Source: Maribacter sp. PR1 (GTDB lineage: Bacteria; Bacteroidota; Bacteroidia; Flavobacteriales; Flavobacteriaceae). From it: 64,000 nucleotides of DNA. Position 1 is the stretch's first letter; every line of letters begins with the position of its first letter. The DNA is taken from assembly GCF_028464145.1 (NCBI RefSeq), contig NZ_JAQPCG010000006.1:186001-250000 (forward strand), written 5' to 3'. The notes beneath the pieces were generated by a model. That model was given only the letters and a program-made list of their open reading frames with translations. It was not told the origin of the DNA and did not search any database. Shown in pieces: positions 2,315-64,000 of the stretch. The position numbers and the translations under genes are program-made.

Positions 2315-2447
2315 CTAATTGCATTAATATTACTAAAATCTCAGATGTAAATCGCCACCTATCATTTCGATTTGTAAGAAGATTTTTTATACTCATTTCA
2401 TTGAATCCTTCAAATTTAGCTATATTTTGACTTTCAATAAACACTAT

Positions 2448-33732: not shown

Positions 33733-33765
33733 AATGTTTGATTCTTTCAATATATATTGTCCAAA

Positions 33766-34173
33766 ATGATGATCCATAAACCAAAAATTATTGAGCTTCC
33801 AAAAATTTTGGATGACCGTGGAAATTTAAGTCTCTTTGAAAATGACGGTCATATCCCTTTTAGCATCAAACGAACCTATTGGATATATGATGTTCCCGGT
33901 GGTGCCATTAGGGGAAGTCATGCTTTTAAAAAATCTAACGAATTTATAATCGCTCTATCGGGAAGTTTTGATGTCATTTTAAATGATGGGCAAAGTGAAA
34001 TTACCCATAATTTGAATCGATCATATTATGGCCTTTTTGTTCCCAAGGGAATTTGGCGTTACATGGAAAATTTTGCAACCAATAGCGTAGCCTTACTCGT
34101 TTCGGATACCGTTTTTGATGAAGACGATTATATAAGAGATAAAGATGAATTTCTAAGATTAAAGTCTAAATGA
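33766..34173 (+). CDS. FdtA/QdtA-family cupin (sugar 3,4-ketoisomerase homologue), copy A
   Basis: Small cupin of 135 residues matching the WxcM-like/FdtA family, which isomerises dTDP-4-keto-6-deoxyglucose to the 3-keto sugar. It has KRTYWIYDVPGGAIRGSHAF and the ALSGSFDVILNDG strand. In characterised FdtA/QdtA an H-x-H pair lies in the active site; here it reads H52-A-F54, so the second histidine is replaced. It may therefore be inactive or act as a partner of copy B. The frame opens at TTG 33757; I chose the ATG at 33766, with 33769 also possible. Its end overlaps copy B by 4 nt (ATGA). Confidence 0.85.
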   Translation: MMIHKPKIIELPKILDDRGNLSLFENDGHIPFSIKRTYWIYDVPGGAIRGSHAFKKSNEFIIALSGSFDVILNDGQSEITHNLNRSYYGLFVPKGIWRYMENFATNSVALLVSDTVFDEDDYIRDKDEFLRLKSK

Positions 34174-34583
34174 AGAAAAAAACTGTATTTGAATGCTCCT
34201 TAATAGAACTTCCAAAAATTAAAAATAGAGCAGGAAATATAACTCCAGTAGAAAATAACATTGAAATACCATTTGAGACCAAAAGAATATTTTATCTCTA
34301 TGATATTCCAGGTGGAATAAGCAGAGGAGCTCACGCACATATAAACTGCCACCAATTTTTAATTGCCGCTTCAGGTAGTTTTGAGGTTGAATTAGACGAC
34401 GGAAAAGTAAAAAAAACCGTGATGCTAAATCAACCATATAGAGGTTTACATATACCTCCGGGTATTTGGGCGTCTGAAATTAATTTCTCATCAGGAGCAA
34501 TTTGCTTGGTCTTAGCCTCTCACAAATATGACCCAACGGATTACATTAGGGATTATGATTCCTTCTTAGAATATGCAAGATAA
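34170..34583 (+). CDS. FdtA/QdtA-family dTDP-4-keto-6-deoxyglucose 3,4-ketoisomerase, copy B
   Basis: Second cupin, 137 residues, clearly homologous to copy A. It keeps the catalytic pair as H55-A-H57 in GGISRGAHAHINCHQF, followed by AASGSFEVELDDGK and GLHIPPGIWASE. It is the best candidate for the working ketoisomerase feeding the aminotransferase at 37646. Whether the product is the galacto (Fuc3N) or gluco (Qui3N) isomer cannot be told. Start and stop overlap both neighbours (4 and 11 nt), a tightly coupled unit with copy A and the formyltransferase. Confidence 0.88.
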   Translation: MKKKTVFECSLIELPKIKNRAGNITPVENNIEIPFETKRIFYLYDIPGGISRGAHAHINCHQFLIAASGSFEVELDDGKVKKTVMLNQPYRGLHIPPGIWASEINFSSGAICLVLASHKYDPTDYIRDYDSFLEYAR

Positions 34584-35415
34584 TAAAATTGGATTTGCCG
34601 GAAAAGGATGGGGAGCTGTAGCTGCTGTAAAAAGTCTAAAACAATTTTATAATTTAGAGTGCCTTTCCACTGATGGTAATGTTATTGATTTACTATCAGA
34701 TCAAAGTAATTTAGTTAACTCCTTTGACGAATTTACCTGTAATCTTATCATATGTGCCGGATATGAGCCTTTGATCGAGGAAAAACTGTTGTCCAGGTAT
34801 AAAATAATCAATATTCATTATTCGTTATTGCCTAAATATCGGGGATGGCATTCCACTGCTTGGGCAATTATGAATGGGGAAAATAAACTAGGGCTATCAA
34901 TTTTTGAAATGAATCAATTTATGGACGATGGACCCATAATTCACCAAAAGAAGTTTGTAAACGATAATACCTCCTCGGCTACACATTACATGGGACTTAT
35001 GAATACCTATATTGAGGAAAATTTGGGTCAGATAATTAATAAATACAGTATCGGAGAAATAACTTCCAAACCACAAGATAAGAGCAAAGCAAGTTGGGTA
35101 GGCAAAAGGAGCCAAACACACAACCTTATTAATTTTAATAATGGTTTTGAACACTGCAAGCGATTGTTTAGGGTTTTACAATTTCCTTATCCACTTCCTC
35201 AAATTAGATATCGGAAAGAATACTATACCGTTGGAAAAGTAGTTTTTCATAAATCTGATGTCCAGACAGATATCGGTAGAATTTTGAACGTAGATAGCGA
35301 TGGTGTTTGGGTAAAATCTCTGGATGGCTATATTATCATGAATGATATCGAAGATGTTATGGGTAATTGCATAAATAATAATACTTTTAAATTAGGAAGT
35401 TTTATAAATGATTGA
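34573..35415 (+). CDS. Sugar N-formyltransferase-like protein
   Basis: Formyltransferase-fold protein of 280 residues, related to methionyl-tRNA formyltransferase and the dTDP-3-amino sugar N-formyltransferases such as QdtF. The catalytic triad is visible: N80 and H82 in INIHYSLLPKYRG and D118 or D119 in FMDDGPI. The N-terminal half is shortened, lacking an obvious Rossmann GxGxxG. The C-terminal part (about 180-280) has an OB-like segment. The ankyrin domain of QdtF is absent. Position directly after the ketoisomerase genes suggests it formylates a dTDP-3-amino-3,6-dideoxyhexose with N10-formyl-THF. The substrate is inferred. Confidence 0.82.
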   Translation: MQDNKIGFAGKGWGAVAAVKSLKQFYNLECLSTDGNVIDLLSDQSNLVNSFDEFTCNLIICAGYEPLIEEKLLSRYKIINIHYSLLPKYRGWHSTAWAIMNGENKLGLSIFEMNQFMDDGPIIHQKKFVNDNTSSATHYMGLMNTYIEENLGQIINKYSIGEITSKPQDKSKASWVGKRSQTHNLINFNNGFEHCKRLFRVLQFPYPLPQIRYRKEYYTVGKVVFHKSDVQTDIGRILNVDSDGVWVKSLDGYIIMNDIEDVMGNCINNNTFKLGSFIND

Positions 35416-36400
35416 AGTAAGAAAATATTTAGCCAGCGATAAAGATGCTTGGGATACATTCATTGATTGTTCAAAAAATTCTACTTTTTTGTTCAAAAGA
35501 GATTTTATGGACTATCACAAACATAAGTTTGATGATTTTTCCGTGGTGGTTTTTGACCAACATAAACTAATAGCAGCACTACCAGCACATTCAATTGATA
35601 GTCAGACTATTGCCTCTCATCTAGGGCTGAGTTATGGTAGCCTTATTTTACAAAAAGACGAAAAATTACAAAGGATACTTTTAATTATTTTTGAATTATT
35701 GAAATTTTTAAGATCTCTTGAAATTCATAAAATTATATTCCAAGAATTCCATCAATTTTATAACACTATTCCTTCGGATGAAGTTGTTTATGGTCTTCAT
35801 TTACTAAAGGCGGAGCTCAATTTGAGACAAATAGTATCCGTTATTAATTTGCAGGATAGAATTAGCTATACCAAGAACAGAAGGAGAAATCGTAATAAGG
35901 CCTTACAATTGGGAATTATGGTAAAGGAAGTTTCTGAGTTTGATGAGTATTGGAATGAAATTTTAATTCCAAATCTGAAAGAACGATACAATGCATATCC
36001 TACCCATACTCTTCAAGAAATAACACAATTACATGATTCGTTCCCAGAAAATATTCGCCAATTTAATGCTTATTTAAATGGCAAAATCATCGCCGGTACC
36101 ACTATTTTTGAATCACGAAATGTTGCTAGGGTACAGTATAACTCAGCCAATCAACTTGGAAAACAATCTGGCGCCTCAGATTTACTATATTCGGAACTTA
36201 TTGAATCAGTTTTTAAGCATAAAAACTATTTTGATTTTGGAACGTCCTTTGATTCTGACTGTATGAACTTTGAATTGTTGAATTGGAAAGAAACATTTGG
36301 AGCAAGGGCGTTTTCTGTAGATACTTACGAAATTAAAACTGAAAATTACCAATTATTAATGAATTATTTACCAACCGAAAGCGTAATGGAAAGTCTATAA
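35408..36400 (+). CDS. FemAB-like GNAT acyltransferase
   Basis: A 330-residue protein resembling the duplicated-GNAT FemAB/lipid-II Gly type. The first half has ALPAHSIDSQTIASHLGLSYG and the second has YTKNRRRNRNKALQLGI, LIPNLKERYNAYPTHTLQEI and the acyl-CoA-like strand AYLNGKIIAGTTIFE. It ends with DFGTSFDSD..NFELLNWKETFGA, typical of FemAB relatives in exopolysaccharide clusters. It overlaps the formyltransferase by 8 nt. It probably transfers an acyl or aminoacyl group to an amino sugar, but the substrate cannot be deduced. Confidence 0.75.
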   Translation: MIEVRKYLASDKDAWDTFIDCSKNSTFLFKRDFMDYHKHKFDDFSVVVFDQHKLIAALPAHSIDSQTIASHLGLSYGSLILQKDEKLQRILLIIFELLKFLRSLEIHKIIFQEFHQFYNTIPSDEVVYGLHLLKAELNLRQIVSVINLQDRISYTKNRRRNRNKALQLGIMVKEVSEFDEYWNEILIPNLKERYNAYPTHTLQEITQLHDSFPENIRQFNAYLNGKIIAGTTIFESRNVARVQYNSANQLGKQSGASDLLYSELIESVFKHKNYFDFGTSFDSDCMNFELLNWKETFGARAFSVDTYEIKTENYQLLMNYLPTESVMESL

Positions 36401-36466: not shown

Positions 36467-37033
36467 ATGAAAAATAGAAAAGAGATTATTGATGGAATTT
36501 TGCCCACAGAGGCGTACAATAGCTATTTCCGTCTGGTAGAAATGGAGGATGCGGAATTCATACTTTCTCTAAGGAACAATGAAAAACTTGCGAAACATAT
36601 CAATCCTACAAGTACCGATATGGAGGAGCAGATTAACTGGTTGAAAGAATATAAAAACAGGGAAAAGAATGGTAAGGATTTCTACATAATTAATTTAAAG
36701 AAGGATGGGAAAACCCGATTGGGCTTAAATAGAATTTACAATGTGGAAGGCGACACCTTTGAGTTCGGAAGCTGGTTGTATAGTCCCGAAGCTGGGCCCA
36801 ATGATGCCGTTTTGGGCGAATTGTTTACAAAAGGTTTAGCATTTGAGGAATTAGGCTTTAACTTATGTAAAATGGAAACTAAGAAAAAAAATACACGAGT
36901 TTTGTGGTATGCTAAATCTTACAAGCCTAAATTTACTGGGGAAGATGAATTTAATCATTATTTTGAATCGGACTACGAGAATTTTAAGGCACATCGTGAA
37001 AAATATTTAAAATTATTTAATGTAAAACCATAA
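36467..37033 (+). CDS. GNAT N-acetyltransferase (amino-sugar type)
   Basis: GNAT-fold protein of 188 residues, similar in layout to RimJ-like PseH and related nucleotide-sugar acetyltransferases. It has FRLVEMEDAEFILSLRNNE at the start, a central FEFGSWLYSPEAGPNDAVLG and FNLCKMETKKKNTRVLWYAK. The normal acetyl-CoA loop Q/RxxGxG/A is not obvious; the region AGPNDAVLGELF takes its place. This suggests it may accept another acyl donor such as the carrier protein encoded next. It is separated by 66 nt from the FemAB-like gene and by 257 nt (37034-37290, no clear feature) from the carrier protein. Confidence 0.75.
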   Translation: MKNRKEIIDGILPTEAYNSYFRLVEMEDAEFILSLRNNEKLAKHINPTSTDMEEQINWLKEYKNREKNGKDFYIINLKKDGKTRLGLNRIYNVEGDTFEFGSWLYSPEAGPNDAVLGELFTKGLAFEELGFNLCKMETKKKNTRVLWYAKSYKPKFTGEDEFNHYFESDYENFKAHREKYLKLFNVKP

Positions 37034-37290: not shown

Positions 37291-37512
37291 ATGCTTATGG
37301 AAAATTACCTACCAACCATGAAGGAGTTTTTGGAAGTGGATAGTATAGAACTAGAAAATGAGCTTTCATCATTTGACAATTGGGATTCAATGACTGTTCT
37401 TATGATAATCGATTTTAGTTCAACTGAATATGGAATTATACTATCTGCTGATGAAATTGAAAACTCACATACTGTTCTAGGGCTTAAAAAGTTAATTGAA
37501 TCCAAGTTATAA
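37291..37512 (+). CDS. Acyl carrier protein
   Basis: A 73-residue phosphopantetheine carrier with the four-helix ACP pattern. The pantetheinylation serine is S33 in FDNWDSMTVLMII, the D-S-M/L motif. The ATG at 37291 gives MLMENYL; the ATG at 37297 (MENYL) is equally possible. It lies in the sugar-modification block with no ketosynthase or ligase beside it, so its loading enzymes must be elsewhere, for instance the ligase at 61233-62693. It could donate an acyl group to one of the upstream acyltransferases. Confidence 0.85.
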   Translation: MLMENYLPTMKEFLEVDSIELENELSSFDNWDSMTVLMIIDFSSTEYGIILSADEIENSHTVLGLKKLIESKL

Positions 37513-37645: not shown

Positions 37646-38749
37646 GTGATAAAATTTTTAGATCTTCAAAAAATTAACGCCCATTACGCAAAAGGGCTTA
37701 AAGAGGCTGCAAATAGAGTCATTGATTCCGGATGGTACTTAATGGGTAAAGAATTGGAGACTTTCGAAAGCAACTATAATAATTTTTGTGGAAGCGGACA
37801 TACTTTAGGTGTGGCAAATGGATTGGACGCCTTGCGCTTAATCTTTAAAGGGTATATGGAGCTTGGAATTATGCAAGAAGGAGATGAGGTCATAGTTCCA
37901 GCGAATACCTATATCGCTTCAGTCTTGGCCATTACGGACAACAATCTAATTCCTGTTTTTGTGGAGCCAAATATCAAAACCTATAATTTAGATGCTACCA
38001 AAATAGAGGCTGTAATTACGAAAAAAACAAAAGCGGTATTAACCGTTCATTTATACGGTCAGATTTCTATTGATCAACAAATGTTGGATATATGTGCAAA
38101 GCATAATTTGAAACTGATAGAGGATGGAGCGCAATCTCACGGCGCGAAATGGAACAATAAAATTTCAGGAGCTATTGGTGATGCGGCAGGACATAGTTTC
38201 TATCCAGGCAAGAACTTGGGTGCATTGGGAGATGCGGGAGCATTAACTACGAAGGACGAACAATTATTTCAAACCACAAAGGCACTTGCCAATTATGGGT
38301 CGCATAAAAAATATGAGAATCTATATCAAGGGTTAAATTCCAGACTAGATGAAATTCAAGCGGCTTTTTTGAACGTAAAATTAAAGCATATACAAGCGGA
38401 TATTGAAGGTAGAAGAAAAGTAGCCAATCGCTATCTGAAAAAAATTAATAACCCGTTGATTATGCTACCAGAAGTAGTAGATGAAGAAGGGCATGTTTGG
38501 CATTTATTTGTGGTTCGAACAGAGAATAGGGATAAACTCCAGAGTTATCTACAAAAGAATGATATTCAAATTATAATTCATTACCCAATCCCTCCGCACA
38601 AGCAAGAAGCTTACAAGGAATTTAATTCCTTATCCTTCCCTATTACTGAGCAAATACACAAACAAGTGCTGAGTTTACCAATTAGTGCTTTCATGACCGA
38701 TGAGGAAATCAACATGGTTATTGAATCACTTAATAGTTACAATGGCTAA
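37646..38749 (+). CDS. DegT/DnrJ/EryC1/StrS-family sugar aminotransferase (FdtB/QdtB-like)
   Basis: PLP-dependent aminotransferase of 367 residues that converts a keto-sugar nucleotide to an amino sugar. It has [18 protein letters not shown], the family start, [36 protein letters not shown] and the PLP lysine in [15 protein letters not shown]. The start is GTG at 37646-37648, as the ATGs lie well inside the fold. With the cupin ketoisomerase it is expected to make dTDP-3-amino-3,6-dideoxyhexose. The flippase ATG overlaps its stop by 8 nt. Confidence 0.92.
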
Positions 38750-43921: not shown

Positions 43922-45217
43922 ATGAAAATTGTAATTGTTCATTATAGGTATTATCATGGTAGCGGTCCAGAAACTTATTTATTCAATGTAAAGCGTCTCT
44001 TTGAAAATAATGGACATACTGTCATTCCATTTTCAGCCTCTTATCCAAATAATGAACCAAGTCCATATTCTGAATACTTTTATAAACCTATTGTTGACAA
44101 ATTTCATTTAAATGAAAACAAAAATAGTATTTCGGTAACTGACCAAATAAAAATTGTAAAAAATAGCTTTTATAATAAGGACGTTTTTAAAAAATTAACT
44201 GGATTATTAAATGATGAAAGGCCCGATGTGGTATACGTCCTTCAATATGGGACAAAATTGTCTACTTCCATTTTTGATGCGGCTTATTCACTAAACATAC
44301 CAGTCGTCTTAAGGTTAAGTGATTTTAATCTCGTATGTGCCAAAAATACTTTTTTTAATAAGGGACAAATTTGTACTAAATGTATTGACAATAGATTCAA
44401 CTCCGTAATGGACAAGTGTGTTCATGACAGTTTAACTCAATCATTCGTATATTTTCTCATTCAAAAGTTCAATCATATACGTCATTTTCAAAATAAAATA
44501 GATGCTTTTATAGTACCTTCTGTTAATACTATGAACTTAATAAAGAAAACCGATCAATTTAAACACGGTAATTTTTATCATGTTCCTACTTTTATTAGCA
44601 AAGAAGAAGACCAACGTTTTCTCAATAAAAAAAAATCAAGCTTGAATGCTGGCATTAGACTATGCTATTTAGGTAGAGTGAGCGAAGATAAAGGTTTGGA
44701 TATACTTATAAATGCAATGATAAATTGCATAAAGAAAGGCATTAAAGTTGAATTAGATATAATTGGTGATTTTAATTCTGATTTTGGATTTAACCTGAAA
44801 AAGGAGGTAGATAGATTTGGTTCCAAACAGATTAAATTTTTAGGTGTTATAGACTCTAATGAAGTTAATATCACATTAAGAAACTATCATTTTTCCGTAG
44901 TTCCATCAAAATGGTATGATAATATGCCAAATTCTTTGATTGAAAGCTCCTTGGAAGGAGTACCCGTAATAGTTTCCAAGATAGGAAGTTTAGAAGAACT
45001 TATACAGAATGGCTATAATGGCTTTACTTTTGAGCATTTAAGTTCTAAAAGTTTAGAAGCTACAATTATTTCACTAGTTGACTTAGGGGAAAAAGAATAC
45101 TATAAGGTTTCGGAAAACTGCATAAAGTGGATACGGGAATACTGTGACAAAGAAAAGCACTTAAAAAGATTACTAAAAATCTTTAAAAGAGTTATCAATG
45201 AAAAAACTAGTAAATAA
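43922..45217 (+). CDS. Family 4 glycosyltransferase with cysteine cluster
   Basis: GT-B enzyme of 431 residues beginning MKIVIVHYRYYHGSGPETYL. The donor domain has CYLGRVSEDKGLDILINAM and the E-x7-E motif in SLIESSLEGVPVIVSKIGSL. Between the domains lies C-x14-C-x2-C-x11-C (about 140-170), seen in a subset of GT4 enzymes and probably binding zinc. The preceding gap of 169 nt has no consensus promoter. The gene and its neighbour at 45198 are noticeably more AT-rich than the next two, suggesting a separate origin. The acetyltransferase gene starts within its last 20 bases. Confidence 0.88.
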   Translation: MKIVIVHYRYYHGSGPETYLFNVKRLFENNGHTVIPFSASYPNNEPSPYSEYFYKPIVDKFHLNENKNSISVTDQIKIVKNSFYNKDVFKKLTGLLNDERPDVVYVLQYGTKLSTSIFDAAYSLNIPVVLRLSDFNLVCAKNTFFNKGQICTKCIDNRFNSVMDKCVHDSLTQSFVYFLIQKFNHIRHFQNKIDAFIVPSVNTMNLIKKTDQFKHGNFYHVPTFISKEEDQRFLNKKKSSLNAGIRLCYLGRVSEDKGLDILINAMINCIKKGIKVELDIIGDFNSDFGFNLKKEVDRFGSKQIKFLGVIDSNEVNITLRNYHFSVVPSKWYDNMPNSLIESSLEGVPVIVSKIGSLEELIQNGYNGFTFEHLSSKSLEATIISLVDLGEKEYYKVSENCIKWIREYCDKEKHLKRLLKIFKRVINEKTSK

Positions 45218-45893
45218 GGTAATCACTTCGCTTGGCAGAGATGGCTACCAACTTGATAAATCAATAAGTTCCTATCATCTTATTGGTATTCTTTTTTCAA
45301 AAGGTATTCAGGCGGTTAGGGGAGTATTTTTAAAACCATTTTTAAAGGAGTCTAAGGGATTAATTTTTTTAGGGAAAAATGTAAAAATTACCGCAAAATC
45401 AAAAATTTCATTTGGACGAACCATAATTATTGGCAATAATGTTTTTATTAACGCGTTGTGCAAAGAAGGTTTAATGTTTGGAAATAATGTGTCGGTCGGC
45501 GATAACACGATTATCGAATGCACGGGTGTAATAAGTCATTTAGGCCAAGGCATTAAAGTAGGTAATAATGTTGGTTTTGCTCAAAATTGTTTTATTCAAG
45601 TAAGAGGCAAGGTTGTGATAGGAAATAATGTGATTTTTGGTCCAAATAGTTCAGTATTTTCTGAAAATCATAATTTTTCAAGTTTAGATGTGCCAATTAA
45701 CATGCAGGGTGTAAATAGAAAAGGTGTGGTTATAGAAGATGGGGTTTGGATTGCGAGTGGCGCTAAAATTTTAGACGGAGTAATTGTCGGCAAAAACAGT
45801 ATAGTAGCTGCCGGAGCTGTAATCAATAAGGACGTCCCCCCCAATTCTATAGTGGGTGGAATTCCTGGGAAAATATTGAAGTATAGAAATTAA
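45198..45893 (+). CDS. Hexapeptide-repeat acyltransferase (left-handed beta-helix)
   Basis: Protein of 231 residues with an N-terminal helical part (about 1-55) and at least eight hexapeptide turns (about 60-225), such as IIIGNNVFINALC, VSVGDNTIIECTG, VVIGNNVIFGPNS and IVGKNSIVAAGAVINKDVPP. It resembles the WbbJ/CysE-type O-acetyltransferases with the catalytic histidine in FSENHNFSS. It probably acetylates a sugar of the polysaccharide. Its ATG lies 20 nt before the end of the upstream glycosyltransferase. Confidence 0.88.
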   Translation: MKKLVNKVITSLGRDGYQLDKSISSYHLIGILFSKGIQAVRGVFLKPFLKESKGLIFLGKNVKITAKSKISFGRTIIIGNNVFINALCKEGLMFGNNVSVGDNTIIECTGVISHLGQGIKVGNNVGFAQNCFIQVRGKVVIGNNVIFGPNSSVFSENHNFSSLDVPINMQGVNRKGVVIEDGVWIASGAKILDGVIVGKNSIVAAGAVINKDVPPNSIVGGIPGKILKYRN

Positions 45894-56447: not shown

Positions 56448-56466
56448 AAATAAGCTGACCTTATTT
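56448..56466 (-). terminator. AT-rich hairpin at the end of the ketosynthase gene
   Basis: Minus-strand stem AAATAAG / CTTATTT (7 bp) with a 5-nt loop, overlapping the last bases of the ketosynthase stop and followed by a T-rich run. It may terminate the right-hand cluster. Confidence 0.4.
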
Positions 56467-57544
56467 AATCATCATAATCAACCATTTCACAAAACTCTAA
56501 ATTACCCATTTCCAAAAGTAGGGAAGACCAACTAAGACCAGCTCCAAAACCTGCCAAACATATTTTTAAAGAATCTTCTTTAAGTTTTTCTCCAAGGTTA
56601 AACGTTATATTGGTAGGTGTTGAAACACTGTTAGCATTACCAAAATTTTCAACCACGTTATGGGGCATTTTTTCGTATGGAACCTCCATTTTATCAGCTA
56701 ATTTCTTAAGCATAAACTTGTTAGGCTGATGAAACATAAAATAGTCAACATCATTTTTGGTGCAATTAGCTCTTTCCAATAGCTTGTCGATCATAGGAGG
56801 CACTTCCTTTTGTACAAAATTAAATACATCATCACCTTTCATTACCAAATGGTCCAATGATCTTGCATTTCCTTTACTATCAGTTTTCAATTCCCTCGTT
56901 TCCGGACTGGATGGCATTTTAAAACCTCCCGCCGGAATTATCAATGCTTCTGCTCCAGTACCATCGGTATTAATAGAGCCATATATTAATGTATCCGAAA
57001 TAGAAGAGCTATCATTTTCGACAATGGTAATAGAAGCGGCATCACCGGTCAAAGGGCGACTACCTCTATCTTTTTCAGATACTTTACGGCTAAAAATATC
57101 CGCATTTAAAACTACAACCTTTTTTATTTCCTCTTGTTCCAGTAGCATAAATGCTTGAATAATTCCAATAGGATATCCAGAACAGGCCTGGCTGGTATCA
57201 AGACATACCATATCGGTTTTTAAGCCTAATCTACCTTGAATAATATGGCTGGTAGAAGGTATAAAGACATCTGGTGACTGGGACACTAAAACTATAGCAT
57301 CTATATCCTCCTTTTTAAGTAGGTTATTATCGAATAGATGGTTTAAACCATGAACGCATAAATCTGAAATAGTGGTACCCGCTTTGACAACCCTTCTTTT
57401 GTTGTAACCCATGATCAGTTTAAGTTTCATAGATTGACTTCTAGAAAAGGCATAGTTCTCTATTTCATCTTCAAATTTAACCTCGTTTTTTGGTAGAACG
57501 GTTAGAATTCCTGTTATCTTTTTATTTTTAAATTTTAAATTCAT
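56465..57544 (-). CDS. 3-oxoacyl-ACP synthase III (FabH-like ketosynthase)
   Basis: Thiolase-fold enzyme of 359 residues with the KASIII triad: cysteine in DTSQACSGYPIG (about 120-131), histidine in MFHQPNKFML (about 265) and asparagine in ENFGNANSVSTP. KASIII enzymes condense an acyl-CoA starter with malonyl-ACP, but related ones also make or transfer esters. It is the last gene of the minus-strand cluster, 68 nt after the LuxE-LuxC fusion. It is unlikely to be the housekeeping fabH, because it lies far from other fab genes and next to specialised acyl genes. Its starter unit is unknown. Confidence 0.88.
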   Translation of the reverse strand: MNLKFKNKKITGILTVLPKNEVKFEDEIENYAFSRSQSMKLKLIMGYNKRRVVKAGTTISDLCVHGLNHLFDNNLLKKEDIDAIVLVSQSPDVFIPSTSHIIQGRLGLKTDMVCLDTSQACSGYPIGIIQAFMLLEQEEIKKVVVLNADIFSRKVSEKDRGSRPLTGDAASITIVENDSSSISDTLIYGSINTDGTGAEALIIPAGGFKMPSSPETRELKTDSKGNARSLDHLVMKGDDVFNFVQKEVPPMIDKLLERANCTKNDVDYFMFHQPNKFMLKKLADKMEVPYEKMPHNVVENFGNANSVSTPTNITFNLGEKLKEDSLKICLAGFGAGLSWSSLLLEMGNLEFCEMVDYDD

Positions 57545-57612
57545 TTTGTTCTATTTTAAATTAAACACTGATTAACTCTGAAAAAGTAAATTTTAATTGG
57601 ATTTATAAAACA

Positions 57613-60096
57613 CTATATAAGTGGCCCGCCAAAAGTACTCCATCTTACCATTCTTTCCATTAGAAAAATTCCGTCCCATGGAGATTCAAAATTCAGCATT
57701 CTACCCATTTCAGGACAACGCATCACCCCTTTTTCCACAGCTTCCTCTGCAAATTTCAAAGCTTTTTCGCCACTAGAAGCAAGGCCAATCGTTTGCATAT
57801 TGTCATCAATATATTGTAAAGTTTCATTGATATGATCAACAGGATGTACCATTATAACCCTGGAATATACAGGTGCGGCCAAATTTGAGTCTTCAGAATA
57901 CACCACTGTCCAGGTAGTATCGTCACTTGCCCAAACCTCTCCTTTAAAATCATATAGTCCCCTAATAGAGTGAATAGCGGATATTTGTTCTACCGAGGTC
58001 TCCCCCTTAGGTATCTGAACAGAAGCTTTTACCATGCCTTCTGCCAAGAATTGGCAAAATTCCTTTGGTGAAACCTCTCCTCCTCTTTCAATATATAGAT
58101 TATGCGGGGAAGCACAACCCGTTTGATCAAAAACACTGGAATCAACGGCTACCTTTCTAGCAAGTTTCTTTGCTTTTCTTTCAGTACCAAGAACTTCTTT
58201 GGATATGGCAGAAAAGGATATCTTAGGTCCAAAAATAATATCTTCCGTATCATACATTGCCGGATAATTAGCTACGGTTTCTACAGCTTCACGTCCACCC
58301 CATGCTATTCTTACATTGGCAGATTTGGACATAAGCTCACCAAGGTCTCTATCCTTACTGGAAAAATATACAACGGCAATGGTTTGTAATAAATCTTCTC
58401 CATCAATTTTGTATCCTCCAGGGGTGGTATAACTTACCCCTTCAAACGTTCGTAATAGATTGGCAAAAACACCTCCGTCCTTAGAAGATATTTTTAATAG
58501 GTTCACATTCTTTGTGAGTATGGCCTGTAATAGAGCAAACATACCTAACACCTGAACATTACCAGCTAACCAATGGCATACCAAACCTTTTTGATTTGCT
58601 TTTAAAAATTGTTTTCTAGATTCATTTAAGGGTAAAAAACCATCGATATACTGGCGATTATTTCTAAGGCCAATTGTGGAAATTCTATTCAGGTGAATCG
58701 GCTTGGCCCAATTGGCAAGAAAAGCTAAGCCCTTTTCCTTCATGGATTCTAAATCTCCCTCTGCCTTCAGCCAAACTTTTGACGCTTCACCAATTAGCCC
58801 TATCAAAGCATCTATTGGTTGGTCCTTTAACCATTGCTTTTTTGCATTAAGTTTAGTGATAAGTTCTGTTAACTGAGCCTCTGCTGCCAATGTTTGGTCC
58901 AACTTTTCTCCCTTCCAGAAATGGAGCTCTAAATTCGATTTTTCCGATATATCTAGTGTCAAATCATCATTTGAAAATTTAAGCTTACTACCTAATATAT
59001 CACCACAACCTCTAATTTCAGCCTTTTTTAATCTTCCTAAAATTTTAAACCTGGTCCCATTTCTTCCATACGGACAGGGTTCGGGGTTTACAATTCCCAT
59101 ATCATCCGTTAGCACCACGTTTCCAGGGTAAGAGTGGGGAATAGGAGACAAAAATTCTAAAACACCTTCTTCACCATCTTGGACCTGCTCCCGAGTTGCT
59201 GGGTTTCTTACAATAATTTCAGAATAAATTGGTGTGTGTTTCCACCCACATTCACAATCGGGATAATTCAATCCCATTTGTTCCGTAAAGCCATAAATAT
59301 CTATTACGTGTTCCTCTTCTACAGAGAACAATTGTGACATGGCTGCATTGAATTGCGGTTTACTGATTTTTTCGTTTTCTAATTTTTTCCATCCACCGAT
59401 ATGAATGATTTTAGATCCCTTAGGCAGCTCAAACTTTACACCTTTGTCCAATAATGGTTTTACAACCTGTGCATATAGCATATAGGTAAAACCGAAAACG
59501 ACCATAGGCACATTCTTATCCATGGAACTTATGAATTCCTTGGTCTTTTCAATATTGAAAGAAACGTTATCACCCGCTTCTATATCCAGAGCATAATTTA
59601 CTTCGCTCGCAAAATTAAGGTAGCCCCCAATAGCTGCATATCTTGCGCCTAAAAACCTTATATTTTCAGGATTTGGGGTTACGTCAACTATAATAAACGG
59701 TTTTCTTTCAGCTCCAATAAAATCCTTTACCACCTTCACCATAACCTTAGCCTGGCGTTTGGCAGTTATTTTATCCAGGACCACGGTACTAGGAATCCCT
59801 GATGTTGCCGAAGACTGTAGCGATAACTTAACCTCATTGTCAGGAACGGATTTTAAATCCTTGCCCAAGTCTTTAAAAACACTTACCGCAATTGGTGGAA
59901 TCTGTTCTAGATTTCCATTAAAATCATGCGGATTAAAGTCTTTATTTTTACAAAAATTTCTGTACTGTTCATTATTGTCATAATGAAACTTTATTTCTTC
60001 AAATAAAGCTTCAGAAAAAAGCTGTTCTTTTTGTTCAGAGCCTATTTCATATGGGTTGTTACCAATTAGGCTATCGGTCATCGTACTATTTTTCAT
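57613..60096 (-). CDS. LuxE-LuxC fusion: acyl-protein synthetase plus acyl-CoA/ACP reductase
   Basis: Two-domain protein of 827 residues. The first (about 1-370) matches LuxE acyl-protein synthetases: DIYGFTEQMGLNYPDCECGW, HSYPGNVVLTDDMG and YGRNGTRFKILGR, with a cysteine in EIRGCGDIL near the expected acylation site. The second (about 370-827) matches LuxC reductases: HWLAGNVQVLGMFALLQAIL, WGGREAVETV, catalytic-type cysteine in FDQTGCASPHNLY and SSGEKALKFAEEAV. In lux systems these are separate subunits that activate a fatty acid and reduce it to aldehyde. The frame opens at TTG 60102; the ATG at 60096 overlaps the upstream stop as ATGA. Confidence 0.88.
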   Translation of the reverse strand: MKNSTMTDSLIGNNPYEIGSEQKEQLFSEALFEEIKFHYDNNEQYRNFCKNKDFNPHDFNGNLEQIPPIAVSVFKDLGKDLKSVPDNEVKLSLQSSATSGIPSTVVLDKITAKRQAKVMVKVVKDFIGAERKPFIIVDVTPNPENIRFLGARYAAIGGYLNFASEVNYALDIEAGDNVSFNIEKTKEFISSMDKNVPMVVFGFTYMLYAQVVKPLLDKGVKFELPKGSKIIHIGGWKKLENEKISKPQFNAAMSQLFSVEEEHVIDIYGFTEQMGLNYPDCECGWKHTPIYSEIIVRNPATREQVQDGEEGVLEFLSPIPHSYPGNVVLTDDMGIVNPEPCPYGRNGTRFKILGRLKKAEIRGCGDILGSKLKFSNDDLTLDISEKSNLELHFWKGEKLDQTLAAEAQLTELITKLNAKKQWLKDQPIDALIGLIGEASKVWLKAEGDLESMKEKGLAFLANWAKPIHLNRISTIGLRNNRQYIDGFLPLNESRKQFLKANQKGLVCHWLAGNVQVLGMFALLQAILTKNVNLLKISSKDGGVFANLLRTFEGVSYTTPGGYKIDGEDLLQTIAVVYFSSKDRDLGELMSKSANVRIAWGGREAVETVANYPAMYDTEDIIFGPKISFSAISKEVLGTERKAKKLARKVAVDSSVFDQTGCASPHNLYIERGGEVSPKEFCQFLAEGMVKASVQIPKGETSVEQISAIHSIRGLYDFKGEVWASDDTTWTVVYSEDSNLAAPVYSRVIMVHPVDHINETLQYIDDNMQTIGLASSGEKALKFAEEAVEKGVMRCPEMGRMLNFESPWDGIFLMERMVRWSTFGGPLI

Positions 60097-61229
60097 GAGC
60101 AAGCTTCTTTAAAAATTTCAAGTAAAAATCCCTTGTCCATAGGTACTGGGTTTCCTTGTCCGCCTTTATCATCTAATGCTTGAATAAAAAAGTCATTATC
60201 CGAAAGGATATGCTGTTCATTTTCCTTGACTATTTTTCTTTCCTTGGTCAGGTCAACACCTGCTATAAAATCTTCTACGAAAGTCAATAAATCTTCACCA
60301 TTGTTAAATCCTGAATGTTTTGCCAACTGACCAAATCTTTCTTTTGAAGCTTGGTCGTTATTATTTTTTCTGATTACTGCAGGTAAAAAAATTGCGATTG
60401 CAGCTGAATGTGATAATCCATATGCAGACATTTGATGTGCCAATGCGTGTGTGGCCCCCACGATACAGTGATTTTGTACTAAGCCAGCAAACAAAGATGC
60501 CAATTGTAATTTATTGATATTTTCAGGGGAAGTGCCTTCACTGATTACTTGGTGGAATTGCGATATTATTTGAATGGCCTTTTCCGCATAACTATCCACC
60601 AACATATTATCAATATTGGACATATACCCTTCTATGGCATGGCTTAATGCATCTACCATTGAAGCCAATAACATGTTCTTTGGCGCATTTACTATAAGGC
60701 TTGCGTCCAAAACAATTATTTCCGGAATGAATTGATGGCTTACCACAAATTCCTTTGTCCTATGACTATCATTGTACATTACGGAAGCTGAGGAAATTTC
60801 AGCTCCACTACCAATCGTCGTAGGTATTGCCACGAATGTCGTTTTCCAATTTAACATTGAAAAACTTGTCTCGTTAATATTGAAAAATGGAAATTCGTAA
60901 TAGGTCCTAACCATTTTAGCACCATCAATAACACTACCTCCACCTACAGCGATAATCAAATCAGGATTAAACTCCTCAATTTTTTTTATTGTTGCATGAA
61001 GTGTTTTCAATGTTGGTTCGCCTATCCAGGTCTTTTTAACAAAAGAAATTTCAAAAGCCGATAAGGCATTTGAAATTTTATCCTTGTAGTCCTCATCTAA
61101 ACCAGAACCATAAATTACAGATACCCTAGAAGTAGCATAGGTTTTAAGACCCATAATAGCGTTATCCCCAAATAGTATGGTTGGTTGTTTTAATAAGAAC
61201 TTTGAATACATTCCTTGTGGTTCCCACAT
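60093..61229 (-). CDS. Iron-containing alcohol dehydrogenase
   Basis: Group III, metal-dependent alcohol dehydrogenase of 378 residues. The NAD-binding GGGSVIDGAKMV (about 97-108) and PTTIGSGAEISSASV are followed by metal ligands in VDALSHAIEGYMS, HALAHQMSAYGLSHSAA and a preceding aspartate in VLDASLI. It interconverts aldehydes and alcohols, fitting the reductase encoded directly downstream (4-nt overlap). It starts 3 nt after the AMP-ligase gene. The substrate chain length is unknown, and reversal (oxidation) cannot be excluded. Confidence 0.9.
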   Translation of the reverse strand: MWEPQGMYSKFLLKQPTILFGDNAIMGLKTYATSRVSVIYGSGLDEDYKDKISNALSAFEISFVKKTWIGEPTLKTLHATIKKIEEFNPDLIIAVGGGSVIDGAKMVRTYYEFPFFNINETSFSMLNWKTTFVAIPTTIGSGAEISSASVMYNDSHRTKEFVVSHQFIPEIIVLDASLIVNAPKNMLLASMVDALSHAIEGYMSNIDNMLVDSYAEKAIQIISQFHQVISEGTSPENINKLQLASLFAGLVQNHCIVGATHALAHQMSAYGLSHSAAIAIFLPAVIRKNNNDQASKERFGQLAKHSGFNNGEDLLTFVEDFIAGVDLTKERKIVKENEQHILSDNDFFIQALDDKGGQGNPVPMDKGFLLEIFKEACS

Positions 61230-61232
61230 ATG

Positions 61233-62693
61233 CTATAATAATTTTTGTCTTTGTATTTTACCTGATTTTGTCTTGGGAATTTCATCTATCCATTCAAAAA
61301 AAACAGGCACCTTATACGATTCAAGATTTGATTTTAAAAACCTCTTGATATCGTTGAAATTATGATGGGCGTCCGTTTTGACAATAAACAGCTTAACCAC
61401 TTCACCTAAAACACCCTCTGGGTCTTCAACACCTATACAGGCCGTTTCTAAGGAAGCATCAAATTCAGTGATTTTGGATTCAACTTCAATTGGCGATAAC
61501 TTCTTACCGCCCACATTTATAATTTCTTTGTATCGTCCCTTGAGAGAGATATAACCATTAGCATCTATACTACCAATATCTCCTGTTCTGAAATAATCGC
61601 CATGGAAAAAATCATCTTTTGACATGTTTAGATATCCATCAAAAACATGATCCCCTTTTACACAGATTTCTCCTTCATTGCCTAAATTTGTGGTTTTACC
61701 TAACTGGTCCAATATTGCTATCTCTACATTGGGACTTGCCTTTCCTACTGTATCCAAATAAATTGAATCTGTCGAGAACTCCATAAAAGCCGATCTAGAG
61801 GCTTCGGTAAGTCCGTAATGCATACATATCCTTGTATTCGGAAAAAGCGCTTTTATATGCTTCTTATCCTTTGGGGACATATAGGCACTACCCAATTCAA
61901 TATAATTTAACTGTTCTGAAAAATCCGATAACCTATTCCCACTCATCTTTTGAATATATTCCCAACTTGCAGGTACCATTCCAAAACCGGTGATTTTATG
62001 TTCTTCAAAACTTCTGAACATTCTTTTCATATTTACGATACTACCCAATAAAACCAAAGTTCCCCCTGCCGACAAAACACATTTAATACGACCAAGACCA
62101 AAAGAGTGGCTTATGGGCAAGGCCAAAAGTTCAATATCACTGTTCGTATTACGAACAAAAGTATTTATATTTTCTGCACTTGCCGCTATATTGCCATGGG
62201 TTAATAAAACTCCTTTTGGATTTCCCGTGGTACCTGTTGTAAATAGAACGTCAGCGTGTTGCTTAACTTTAGGGTAATCAATATCGACCGGTATATTGGT
62301 TGACTCAATATTTTTAAAAATATCAAAATCATAACACCTGTTGTCATTTTTTAAAGCAAGCCCAACAATTAGTTTTGGTTTGGTCTGATCAACTACGTGA
62401 TCAAGTTTGTCAACTTGTATTTGTTCATCCAAAGGAGCTACTTTTGCCCCAATAAGATGGAGTGCAAAATATGAATAAATAAAATTGACATTTTTGTTGG
62501 CTGCCAATAAAACAACATCATCCTTTTCTATGAAAAAATCCTTTTCAAGTTTTGCTTTTACAGACCAAATATTGTCAACAAGCTCTTTATAGGTAATAGA
62601 AACTTTCTTATCTACAAGTGCTGTTTTTTCCGGGGTTCTTCTTGCCCATTCAAATATTTTTTCCTCTATTGAAACAAAAGGCATAGCCAACAT
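61233..62693 (-). CDS. AMP-dependent acyl ligase (acyl-ACP/CoA synthetase)
   Basis: ANL-superfamily adenylating enzyme of 486 residues. The P-loop is FTTGTTGNPKGVLLTHGN (about 152-169), followed by the hinge/aromatic motif MHYGLTEAS, YFRTGDIG with the ribose-binding aspartate, GRYKEIINVGGKK and the C-terminal catalytic lysine in KTKSGKIQ. It activates a carboxylic acid and probably loads it onto the ACP encoded 3 nt upstream. The start is the ATG at 62693; the ATG at 62684 is also possible. The acid is unknown. Confidence 0.88.
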   Translation of the reverse strand: MLAMPFVSIEEKIFEWARRTPEKTALVDKKVSITYKELVDNIWSVKAKLEKDFFIEKDDVVLLAANKNVNFIYSYFALHLIGAKVAPLDEQIQVDKLDHVVDQTKPKLIVGLALKNDNRCYDFDIFKNIESTNIPVDIDYPKVKQHADVLFTTGTTGNPKGVLLTHGNIAASAENINTFVRNTNSDIELLALPISHSFGLGRIKCVLSAGGTLVLLGSIVNMKRMFRSFEEHKITGFGMVPASWEYIQKMSGNRLSDFSEQLNYIELGSAYMSPKDKKHIKALFPNTRICMHYGLTEASRSAFMEFSTDSIYLDTVGKASPNVEIAILDQLGKTTNLGNEGEICVKGDHVFDGYLNMSKDDFFHGDYFRTGDIGSIDANGYISLKGRYKEIINVGGKKLSPIEVESKITEFDASLETACIGVEDPEGVLGEVVKLFIVKTDAHHNFNDIKRFLKSNLESYKVPVFFEWIDEIPKTKSGKIQRQKLL

Positions 62694-62696
62694 TTA

Positions 62697-62930
62697 TTAA
62701 GAAATGCGTTCTTCCACAGCTTCTATCATATCACCTACATCCTCTAAATCCATTATTACCTCAGGATCAAACTTAATATCAAATTCTTTTTCAAGTGCCG
62801 AGATAATAATTACTTGCCCCATAGAGTCCCATTTAGGAAAGTCACCTATTGCCGTATCCTCTTCTATTTTAGAAACTTCAACTTCTATAGCTTCTGCTAT
62901 TATATTTTTCACCTTTTCTTCTGTATTCAT
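62697..62930 (-). CDS. Acyl carrier protein
   Basis: A 77-residue ACP-like protein with the phosphopantetheine serine S36 in FPKWDSMGQVIIISALEK. Helix I is MNTEEKVKNIIAEAIEVE. It differs from the housekeeping AcpP by the KWDSMG motif and so belongs to specialised carrier proteins. It precedes the AMP-ligase by 3 nt, which strongly suggests that the two form a loading pair. The 197-nt gap before it (62931-63127) has no promoter match that I can see. Confidence 0.92.
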   Translation of the reverse strand: MNTEEKVKNIIAEAIEVEVSKIEEDTAIGDFPKWDSMGQVIIISALEKEFDIKFDPEVIMDLEDVGDMIEAVEERIS

Positions 62931-63127
62931 CTTAAATAATTGTAATTGTTTGATTGTCTTTTGATTTTCACCTTTTCTCTTCTTAAAAACTTAAAACAAT
63001 TCATTTTAGTGTGCAAAAGAAAACATTTTCATTTTTAAATCATCATAATTTTGATAAAACCCACAAAGCATCGATGAGGATCAATCTTTTCAAGATTTAA
63101 AGCTTTATTTTTCTATATTTTATACCC

Positions 63128-63811
63128 CTAGGAAATATGAAATCCCGCGTAAAATCTATCATTTTTTTTCAAAGAACTATAGTTCGAATCATTGAAACCT
63201 GCCATTTTCATTAGTTCGTTCACCTTGTCTATATCATAAGCTACCCTATGTAAAGATATTTCACCTTGATCATAAATGGCAAATGCCGATTTTGGGTTTT
63301 TATCTCGAGGTTGGCCAACTGAACCTGGGTTACAGTAAACCTTTTCTTTATATATTTCTAATTTTTGGATATGCGTATGACCAGAGATAAAAGTTTTACC
63401 TTCTATTGTTGAAAAATATTCTTGTGATGGGTTAAAGAGGTACTCATCGATGGGGTCTGACCATCCGCCATGTACCATATGAAGATCATTTAATACAAAT
63501 TGAAGCTGATTTGAACCTAGCCATTTTAAATTTTCTTTTGTGATTACCCGTCGTTGATATTCTAAACATTTGTTCACATGTTCTGACCTTGTACAAAATC
63601 CTCCACTGACCATATACCAATCATGATTGCCCATTAATGTTGGTATATTTCTTTCAATCAAGGCATTACAACATTCGTTTACTTGAGAGTAATATCCCAC
63701 AACGTCACCCAAACAATAAACTTTAGAGATATTTAATTGATCTAAATGTGCCAAAACCATCTTTAGAGCTTCATAGTTTCCATGTATATCCGATATTATA
63801 CCTATTTTCAT
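63128..63811 (-). CDS. Calcineurin-like metallophosphoesterase
   Basis: Metal-dependent phosphoesterase of 227 residues with all the motifs of the fold: SDIHGNYEAL, GDVVGYYSQV, LMGNHDWYM and ISGHTHIQKLE. It belongs to the YfcE/PrpE-like branch, whose members cleave phosphodiesters or phosphomonoesters. Its ATG overlaps the stop of the ATP-grasp gene (ATGA), so the two are coupled. It lies 197 nt upstream of the ACP gene on the same strand and probably joins the cluster, though its part there is unknown. Confidence 0.88.
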   Translation of the reverse strand: MKIGIISDIHGNYEALKMVLAHLDQLNISKVYCLGDVVGYYSQVNECCNALIERNIPTLMGNHDWYMVSGGFCTRSEHVNKCLEYQRRVITKENLKWLGSNQLQFVLNDLHMVHGGWSDPIDEYLFNPSQEYFSTIEGKTFISGHTHIQKLEIYKEKVYCNPGSVGQPRDKNPKSAFAIYDQGEISLHRVAYDIDKVNELMKMAGFNDSNYSSLKKNDRFYAGFHIS

Positions 63812-64000
63812 GAATAATATATATGTTCTTCAATATATCTAATTGCTTTTCCCTTTCTTATAATTGGTTGTTCAGGGGCTTCGCTTTCTAAAAAATAATC
63901 AACTGCCATAACAGCATCATTATAACCAAAAGCACTCCTCATTGAAGTAGAGGCAGAAAAACGTGGATTAATTTCTAGCAATTGAAACTGATTATTATGC
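63808..64000 (-). CDS. ATP-grasp domain protein (C-terminal part, runs off window)
   Basis: I translated the last 193 bases of the minus strand; 64 codons to a TGA at 63810-63808. The piece reads LLEINPRFSASTSMRSAFGY, the E-x-N-P-R metal-binding motif at the end of an ATP-grasp domain, then a hydrophilic tail. ATP-grasp enzymes join a carboxylate to an amine, thiol or phosphate through an acyl phosphate. The 5' part lies beyond base 64000. It overlaps the metallophosphoesterase by 4 nt. Confidence 0.75.
   Translation of the reverse strand, partial: HNNQFQLLEINPRFSASTSMRSAFGYNDAVMAVDYFLESEAPEQPIIRKGKAIRYIEEHIYYS

What the first reader, a model, noticed from the sequence alone, without database searches (positions are those of the whole stretch)
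56465..64000. Candidate undescribed acyl-reduction cluster beside the polysaccharide locus
Seven same-strand genes combine an ATP-grasp protein, a phosphoesterase, a dedicated ACP, an AMP-ligase, an iron-type alcohol dehydrogenase, a LuxE-LuxC fusion and a FabH-like ketosynthase. Five of them are spaced by 68 nt or less, several by overlaps or 3 nt. Established family roles predict loading of an acid on ACP, possible extension, activation and reduction to aldehyde, then to alcohol. No luciferase, FabG or FabZ is in view. The product (a polysaccharide substituent, lipid or signal) is inference.
Basis: partly seen in the sequence, partly recalled or inferred. Interest (0 to 1): 0.8.

Follow-up and report, generated by a model that had tools for sequence, protein, structure and literature searches.

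The report
Polysaccharide acyl-decoration gene module
A bacterium carries, inside its variable surface-polysaccharide gene region, a set of genes that most likely builds an unusual hydroxy-acid and hangs it on a surface sugar; the core of the set resembles one proposed in 1995 for the cholera O1 antigen, and the new part is an added chain-building enzyme with its own carrier protein.

Summary
In detail: seven same-strand genes of the named families, the last finishing at 64776 once the contig is extended. The reading 'undescribed acyl-reduction cluster beside the polysaccharide locus' needs two corrections. (1) The cluster lies inside the locus: mnmE- and ompA-like genes flank a variable interval, convergent in 18 of the 19 genus genomes with both on one contig (37-127 kb). 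(2) The core ACP / AMP-ligase / iron-ADH / LuxE-LuxC fusion resembles rfbKLMN, the proposed 3-deoxy-L-glycero-tetronate (2,4-dihydroxybutanoate) module of Vibrio cholerae O1; published O1 rfb PCR primers translate to the fusion's own peptides at the same 192-nt spacing. ACP and AMP-ligase sit upstream of the fusion in 13 of 13 other fusion loci; 8 have iron-ADH, 4 others a split transketolase (one cut by the contig end). The FabH-like gene is extra. Best reading: a hydroxyacyl substituent, possibly lengthened by two carbons, amide-linked to a dTDP-amino-dideoxyhexose. ATP-grasp and phosphoesterase are not part of the conserved module. A new variant of a known kind.

The parts
62697..62930 (-). 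ACP1, RfbK-like carrier protein (77 aa, DSM attachment motif)
   Evidence: Pfam PP-binding 9e-9; homologue upstream of the ligase in 13 of 13 other fusion loci
61233..62693 (-). AMP-forming acyl ligase, RfbL-like; would load the hydroxy acid on ACP1
   Evidence: Pfam AMP-binding 1e-60; window copy keeps the adenylation motifs; relative in 13 of 13 other fusion loci, the copy in L014 being divergent (28%, altered A5 motif)
60093..61229 (-). Iron-type alcohol dehydrogenase, RfbM-like; would reduce the aldehyde to the alcohol
   Evidence: Pfam Fe-ADH 2e-29; D193, H197, H261, H274 invariant in 9 of 9 aligned; homologue between ligase and fusion in 8 of 13 other fusion loci
57613..60096 (-). LuxE-LuxC fusion, RfbN-like carboxylate reductase (ORF listing starts it at a TTG, 60102)
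   Evidence: Pfam LuxE and LuxC; PDB 7xc6 matches to both halves; adenylation motifs, C366 and C663 invariant in 14 of 14; V. cholerae O1 rfb primer peptides FTEQM and VVLTDD at 272 and 329 of the 829-aa frame
56465..57544 (-). FabH-like ketosynthase III with Cys121-His272-Asn303
   Evidence: Pfam ACP_syn_III; triad invariant in 10 of 10 aligned, one copy per locus; also directly after the fusion in L005-L007
37291..37512 (+).
   Evidence: ORF; 51% identity over 71 aa to the ACP directly after the FabH-like gene in Winogradskyella L005; no Pfam or NCBIfam hit of its own
33757..34173 (+). FdtA-like dTDP-keto-sugar isomerase 1
   Evidence: Pfam FdtA 1e-47
34170..34583 (+). FdtA-like dTDP-keto-sugar isomerase 2
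   Evidence: Pfam FdtA 6e-53
36467..37033 (+). GNAT acyltransferase, candidate for the transfer step
   Evidence: Pfam Acetyltransf_3 2e-7; PseH match below its cut-off
35408..36400 (+). FemAB/GNAT-type transferase, second candidate for the transfer step
   Evidence: Pfam Acetyltransf_6 1e-5
37646..38749 (+). DegT-type sugar aminotransferase that would make the acceptor amine
   Evidence: Pfam DegT_DnrJ_EryC1 6e-96
63128..63811 (-). YfcE-type phosphoesterase; same strand, not part of the conserved module
   Evidence: Pfam Metallophos_2; in 0 of 13 other fusion loci
63808..64000 (-). ATP-grasp protein (PRK12767 type), runs on to 64776 outside the window; not part of the conserved module
   Evidence: among 13 other fusion loci only one weak match, 23% in L015

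Best explanation
An rfbKLMN-type module inside the organism's variable surface-polysaccharide locus, with an added FabH/ACP2 arm. The LuxE half adenylates a carboxylate (malate is my inference) and takes it on a cysteine; the LuxC half reduces it to an aldehyde; the iron-ADH reduces that to the alcohol, giving a 2,4-dihydroxybutanoate (3-deoxytetronate) type acid; the AMP-ligase loads it on ACP1. The FabH-like enzyme may then add two carbons, with the product on ACP2, before a GNAT transferase puts the acyl group on the amine of a dTDP-3-amino-3,6-dideoxyhexose made by the Rml/FdtA/DegT genes. Shown here: gene families, catalytic motifs, conserved order, position in the locus, an ACP2 in the sugar operon, a peptide-level resemblance to the O1 rfb product. 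Inferred: every substrate and product, the extension step, which transferase acts.
For: Order ACP1 / ligase / (ADH) / fusion kept in Bacteroidetes, Lachnospiraceae and a Nitrospirae MAG; motifs intact; LuxE/LuxC structural relatives; 8 of 13 other fusion loci have iron-ADH, and 4 that lack it carry a split transketolase pair just upstream of ACP1 (L012, L015, L017; in L013 only the end of the second half, at the contig edge), i.e. two kinds of aldehyde-using enzyme; Rhizobium plasmid with transketolase halves, acyltransferase, AMP-binding protein, aminotransferase, a LuxE match and acyl-CoA reductase; published links of RfbL, RfbK, RfbN and VC0248-VC0252 to O1 tetronate, and loss of O1-substituted LPS when WbeL (RfbL) is truncated; O1 rfb primer peptides and their 192-nt spacing found in the fusion; ACP2 among FdtA, GNAT and DegT genes; mnmE-ompA variable interval; no luciferase family in the genome.
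Against: No full RfbKLMN sequence could be fetched, so homology to the Vibrio proteins rests on two short peptides plus paper statements; that RfbM is an iron-ADH, RfbN a LuxE-LuxC fusion and the order K-L-M-N is recalled. The Vibrio pathway is called putative in its own title. PMC12208996 says RfbL puts the acid on CoA or on RfbK, so ACP loading is not settled there. No PglD-like transferase matches the window or L002, and no FabG-type SDR lies in the locus: the only match is at 2427-3026, outside it, so an extended product would stay a ketone or use a housekeeping enzyme. None of the candidate transferases is tied to the cluster by conservation. The 5-gene cluster and ACP2 are about 19 kb apart on opposite strands. 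L009 has the core without ADH or transketolase.
Confidence: 0.7

Rival explanations
1. The module makes a plain ACP1-borne 2,4-dihydroxybutanoyl group as proposed for Vibrio; the FabH-like enzyme and ACP2 make a separate short hydroxyacyl (acetoacetyl or 3-hydroxybutyryl type) substituent for another amino sugar. (This shares the core with the best explanation, so the odds are not exclusive.)
For: FabH-like genes occur in loci with and without iron-ADH, and in several with SDR genes and a second ACP; F. psychrophilum 3,5-dihydroxyhexanoyl is ascribed to ketosynthase, ACP, reductase and PglD-like genes, with no LuxE/LuxC in the passages read.
Against: In the window and in three Winogradskyella loci the FabH-like gene is directly downstream of the fusion on the same strand, and the L014 relative at 48% is in the same gene run.
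Confidence: 0.35
2. The cluster reduces fatty acids to fatty alcohols for a lipid, wax or signal, as LuxE/LuxC do for luciferase.
For: LuxE and LuxC of PDB 7xc6 are the only two PDB sequence matches at E 0.01; Aeromonas authors suggested a liposugar for islands with luxE/luxC, ACP and AMP-synthetase; the own genome has one LuxD-family match over the curated cut-off (28.5 bits, part of the profile, on another contig).
Against: The genome has no Bac_luciferase match; the cluster sits in a polysaccharide locus; the fusion carries the FTEQM and LTDD peptides of the O1 rfb amplicon, and neither of the two unfused LuxE relatives checked has FTEQM.
Confidence: 0.1
3. The ATP-grasp and phosphoesterase belong to the same pathway, for example amino-acid amidation of a uronic acid that carries the acyl group.
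For: Same strand and adjacency; UDP-glucose dehydrogenase and an epimerase lie nearby; ATP-grasp (E 1e-30) and the fusion (E 1e-20) are both absent from the 35 other genus genomes.
Against: 197-nt gap; phosphoesterase in 0 and ATP-grasp in 1 (weak) of 13 other fusion loci; the whole interval looks variable, so shared absence is expected.
Confidence: 0.15

Closest known systems
Vibrio cholerae O1 tetronate genes rfbKLMNO / wbeKLMNO (VC0248-VC0252)
   Same: Carrier protein, acid-activating ligase and LuxE-domain protein in an O-antigen locus; iron-ADH as RfbM, LuxE-LuxC fusion as RfbN and the order K-L-M-N are recalled; primer peptides and spacing agree.
   Different: Here a FabH-like gene and a second ACP are added, no hexapeptide transferase follows the fusion, and the acceptor is probably a dTDP-3-amino-dideoxyhexose rather than perosamine.
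Flavobacterium psychrophilum wfpC-wfpG R-group genes (3,5-dihydroxyhexanoyl on Qui2NAc4N)
   Same: Ketosynthase plus dedicated ACP in an O-polysaccharide locus, proposed to feed an amino-sugar N-acyl group (passages).
   Different: Two ketosynthases, a reductase and a PglD homologue there; one FabH-like gene and GNAT candidates here, plus the LuxE-LuxC arm.
Aeromonas and enterobacterial flagellin glycosylation islands with ACP, FabG, AMP-synthetase or CaiC ligase, LuxE, LuxC
   Same: ACP / AMP-ligase / LuxE / LuxC combination in glycan loci (passages).
   Different: LuxE and LuxC are named as separate genes in the passages read, and FabG (FabZ too in the enterobacteria) is present; flagellar context.
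lux operon fatty-acid reductase (LuxC/LuxE, PDB 7xc6)
   Same: Same two enzyme families; acid-to-aldehyde chemistry (recalled).
   Different: Fused here, no luciferase family in the genome, separate iron-ADH, ACP and ligase.

Membership tests
V. cholerae O1 rfbKLMNO tetronate module | ACP, AMP-ligase, iron-ADH and LuxE-LuxC fusion as consecutive genes | tested here: met
   the Vibrio order and the ADH and fusion identities are recalled, since the Vibrio locus itself was not fetched
V. cholerae O1 rfbKLMNO tetronate module | Sequence relatedness to RfbN | tested here: inconclusive
   Published O1 rfb primers translate to FTEQM and VVLTDD, present at 192-nt spacing; that the pair lies in rfbN is recalled (papers read call rfbN O1-specific, without these primers); full sequence not available
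V. cholerae O1 rfbKLMNO tetronate module | Location in an O-antigen or capsule locus | tested here: met
   mnmE-ompA interval with FdtA, DegT, GNAT (Pfam) and Rml-, Wzx- and glycosyltransferase-like ORFs named by eye
V. cholerae O1 rfbKLMNO tetronate module | RfbO-like hexapeptide acyltransferase adjacent | tested here: not met
   FabH-like gene, then UGD on the other strand, follow the fusion; a hexapeptide protein lies at 45198-45893, best NCBIfam match WbbJ O-acetyltransferase, below cut-off; RfbO as hexapeptide protein is recalled
V. cholerae O1 rfbKLMNO tetronate module | 3-deoxy-L-glycero-tetronyl product on an amino sugar | not testable with these tools
   Needs polysaccharide NMR or MS
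F. psychrophilum-type polyketide R-group pathway | Ketosynthase with Cys-His-Asn triad and an ACP in the same locus | tested here: met
   Triad; ACP2 at 37291-37512, 19 kb away
F. psychrophilum-type polyketide R-group pathway | Ketoacyl-ACP reductase and PglD-type transferase in the locus | tested here: not met
   tblastn with four FabG-like and three PglD-like proteins of other fusion loci against the window and L002: FabG only at 2427-3026, outside the interval; PglD none at E 1e-3
Bioluminescence lux system | Bacterial luciferase in the genome | tested here: not met
   PF00296: no match in the own genome; the same search rings in 10 of 14 control genomes

The most novel reading that the evidence does not exclude
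The FabH-like enzyme uses the ACP1-borne dihydroxybutanoyl group as a starter, so the cell decorates its amino sugar with a C6 polyhydroxy (or 3-oxo-4,6-dihydroxy) acyl group, a carboxylate-reductase-primed mini-polyketide that to my knowledge (recalled, no dedicated search) is not known in any polysaccharide. More widely, LuxE/LuxC modules that pair with either an ADH or a split transketolase form an unrecognised combinatorial platform for building sugar N-acyl groups.
Probability: 0.3. Interest if true: 0.55.

Novelty: new variant of a known kind. Interest (0 to 1): 0.36.

Why it matters
It carries a pathway proposed for one pathogen's O-antigen into Bacteroidetes and Lachnospiraceae, with genes intact enough to assay outside any pathogen, and the choice between ADH and transketolase in otherwise similar loci gives a genetic handle on the aldehyde intermediate. 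If the FabH arm extends the tetronyl starter, it would predict a new class of polysaccharide substituent that NMR can check.

Tried and rejected
Rejected: light-type chemistry (no luciferase family); a phage or plasmid origin is not supported (viral-contig scan: 4 stretches matched a pattern, none a relative; phage tblastn gave one LuxE-like record at 24%; all 43 plasmid records match under 60% identity); ATP-grasp and phosphoesterase as part of the module. Led nowhere: promoter and terminator scan (36 promoter-like sites against 32.6 expected, 4 terminator-like against 5.5); NCBIfam (no listed match above cut-off for the five core genes; for the ligase 25 of 105 families were listed); paper searches for rfbK-rfbO, wbeN/wbeM or tetronate with rfbN by name (none; one unrelated S. 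aureus paper). Searches behind 'not described in this form': (20 of 102 papers listed), open-licence papers only. Structure prediction and fold search were not run.

Results against or limiting my reading: the fusion is rare. It is in 1 of 100 relatives (E 1e-20), 1 of 397 of the family (E 1e-100) and 2 of 395 of the phylum (E 1e-80), each count including the own genome; the second phylum hit is partial (model positions 6-401 of 825) with two stops inside. It is in 3 of 68 of the genus of L005, the same three genomes as L005-L007. So conservation is shown only across patchy loci. Two of 15 fetched loci (L018, L019) have unfused LuxE and were left out of the 13. L009 lacks both ADH and transketolase. 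L016 lacks FTEQM (it reads FTEQL). Eight same-genus stretches beside the OmpA-like gene (7-18 kb each) held none of the five core genes except a 23% ligase match in L040.
Full report
Observation. The seven genes are present as described, on the minus strand, with Pfam matches above the curated cut-offs. The window is bases 186001-250000 of contig C20 of its assembly. Extending it shows that the ATP-grasp gene ends at 64776 and is followed by an OmpA-like gene and unrelated genes (named by eye), so nothing of the cluster is missing. Gaps from ACP to FabH-like gene are 3, 3, -10 and 68 nt; the phosphoesterase is 197 nt from the ACP.

Conserved core. A scan of GTDB contigs with the fusion gave 15 loci: 13 encode a fusion and two (L018, L019) an unfused LuxE. 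In the 13, an ACP1 and an AMP-ligase relative lie upstream in 13 of 13; iron-ADH sits between ligase and fusion in 8; a FabH-like relative is somewhere in the locus in 9, directly downstream of the fusion in the three Winogradskyella loci; phosphoesterase in none; ATP-grasp in one at 23%. In three loci without ADH (L012, L015, L017) two genes just upstream of ACP1 form a family that Pfam identifies, in L017, as the two halves of a transketolase; a fourth, L013, shows the end of the second half at its contig edge (49% over 107 residues). L018, with unfused LuxE and LuxC, has the same pair. L009 has neither. A Rhizobium plasmid has transketolase halves, an acyltransferase, an AMP-binding protein, a DegT aminotransferase, a LuxE match and an acyl-CoA reductase in one stretch. 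The shared logic, that an aldehyde made by LuxE/LuxC is handed to either a dehydrogenase or a transketolase, is my inference.

Enzyme integrity. Across 14 fusions the motifs SSATSG, YGFTEQ and LTDD and the cysteines C366 and C663 are invariant; across 9 ADHs D193, H197, H261 and H274; across 10 FabH-like proteins (one per locus) C121, H272 and N303. Their catalytic roles are recalled from the families. The ligase motifs are intact in the window copy but altered in L014 and L018. The PDB relatives of the fusion are two chains of entry 7xc6; of the ADH, aldehyde-alcohol dehydrogenases, 1,3-propanediol and lactaldehyde reductases; of the FabH-like protein, bacterial 3-oxoacyl-ACP synthases.

Known relative. 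A passage of PMC4772473 says that a LuxE domain is found in V. [quoted passage not shown] PMC3441752 (passages) lists VC0248-VC0252 as tetronate genes, the O1 antigen as perosamine acylated with tetronate, and a strain with truncated WbeL as lacking O1-substituted LPS. [quoted passage not shown] That RfbM is an iron-type ADH, RfbN a LuxE-LuxC fusion and the order K-L-M-N is recalled. I could not fetch the Vibrio proteins. As a partial test, the published O1 rfb primers, given with a 192-bp product in passages of PMC3702338 and PMC10617385, translate to FTEQM and VVLTDD; both occur in the window fusion at residues 272 and 329, which gives 192 nt between the outer primer ends. FTEQM or VVLTD occurred in 1 of 2000 shuffles. 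FTEQM is in 13 of 14 fusions and in neither of the two unfused LuxE proteins.

Place in the genome. In the genus, the mnmE-like and OmpA-like genes (named by eye) were each found in 33 of 36 genomes, both in 31; they are on one contig in 19, convergent in 18 of these, with 37-127 kb between them; the exception, G012, has 15 kb and another orientation. In the window the interval holds two FdtA genes, a formyltransferase, GNAT genes, a DegT aminotransferase, a WecA-type transferase, a hexapeptide transferase, UGD and an epimerase by Pfam, and Rml-, Wza/Wzc-, Wzx- and glycosyltransferase-like ORFs by eye. Eight relatives' stretches beside the OmpA-like gene lack the cluster; in two that I read (L035, L041, the latter from G012) some polysaccharide genes are recognisable by eye. 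So the seven genes lie inside a variable polysaccharide locus.

The missing carrier. It is 51% identical over 71 residues to the ACP that directly follows the FabH-like gene in Winogradskyella L005, 52% and 49% in L007 and L006, and hardly alignable to ACP1. A small tree groups it with those (support 0.94 for the group, 0.31 inside it). L014 also has two ACPs and a FabH-like gene at 48%. This ties the FabH-like enzyme to the amino-sugar part of the locus.

Mechanism. Most likely the cluster makes an ACP-borne hydroxyacyl group by acid reduction, possibly lengthens it on ACP2, and N-acylates a dTDP-3-amino-3,6-dideoxyhexose. The F. psychrophilum O-polysaccharide gives a precedent in which ketosynthase/ACP genes are predicted to build a dihydroxyhexanoyl N-acyl group (PMC6519341, passages). 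There a reductase and a PglD homologue are included; here no FabG-like gene lies in the interval and no PglD-like gene was found in the window or L002. Substrates and products here are inferred.

Distribution. The fusion is rare and patchy: 1 of 397 family genomes, 3 of 68 in the genus of L005, yet 83-84% identical between this genome and Winogradskyella, while the DnaK-like protein is 89% and the MnmE-like protein within the own genus is 66-85%. That fits exchange of locus pieces between genera but is not a formal test.

Verdict. A real, complete cluster; not an undescribed system at its core; a new variant through its FabH/ACP2 arm.

Noticed in passing
window 33757-34583: Two FdtA-like genes in tandem, overlapping by 4 nt, next to a sugar formyltransferase-like gene (34573-35415): either two keto-sugar isomerase specificities or a duplicated one.
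   Followed up: partly
L012:6478-8314, L015:6515-8297, L017:6419-8282, L018:6830-8598, L013:2-322: A split transketolase pair stands just upstream of the ACP or ligase of LuxE/LuxC loci that lack the iron-ADH (Pfam run only on L017; the others by similarity; L013 cut by the contig end).
   Followed up: partly
L048 (Rhizobium anhuiense plasmid NZ_CP098804.1, 185517-194556): Transketolase halves, acyltransferase, small hypothetical protein, AMP-binding protein, DegT aminotransferase, LuxE match and acyl-CoA reductase in one stretch of a plasmid: another form of the module.
   Followed up: no
G000:C12:503699-504622: A second protein over the LuxE family cut-off (56.6 bits) elsewhere in the own genome, unexamined.
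   Followed up: no
window 26156-27562 to L002:10819-12000: mnmE- and ompA-like genes frame a 37-127 kb interval, convergent in 18 of 19 genus genomes with both on one contig; usable as anchors for locus typing.
   Followed up: partly
L014:12800-14329: A second AMP-ligase gene after the fusion in a Lachnospiraceae locus, besides a divergent first one (28% to the window ligase).
   Followed up: no
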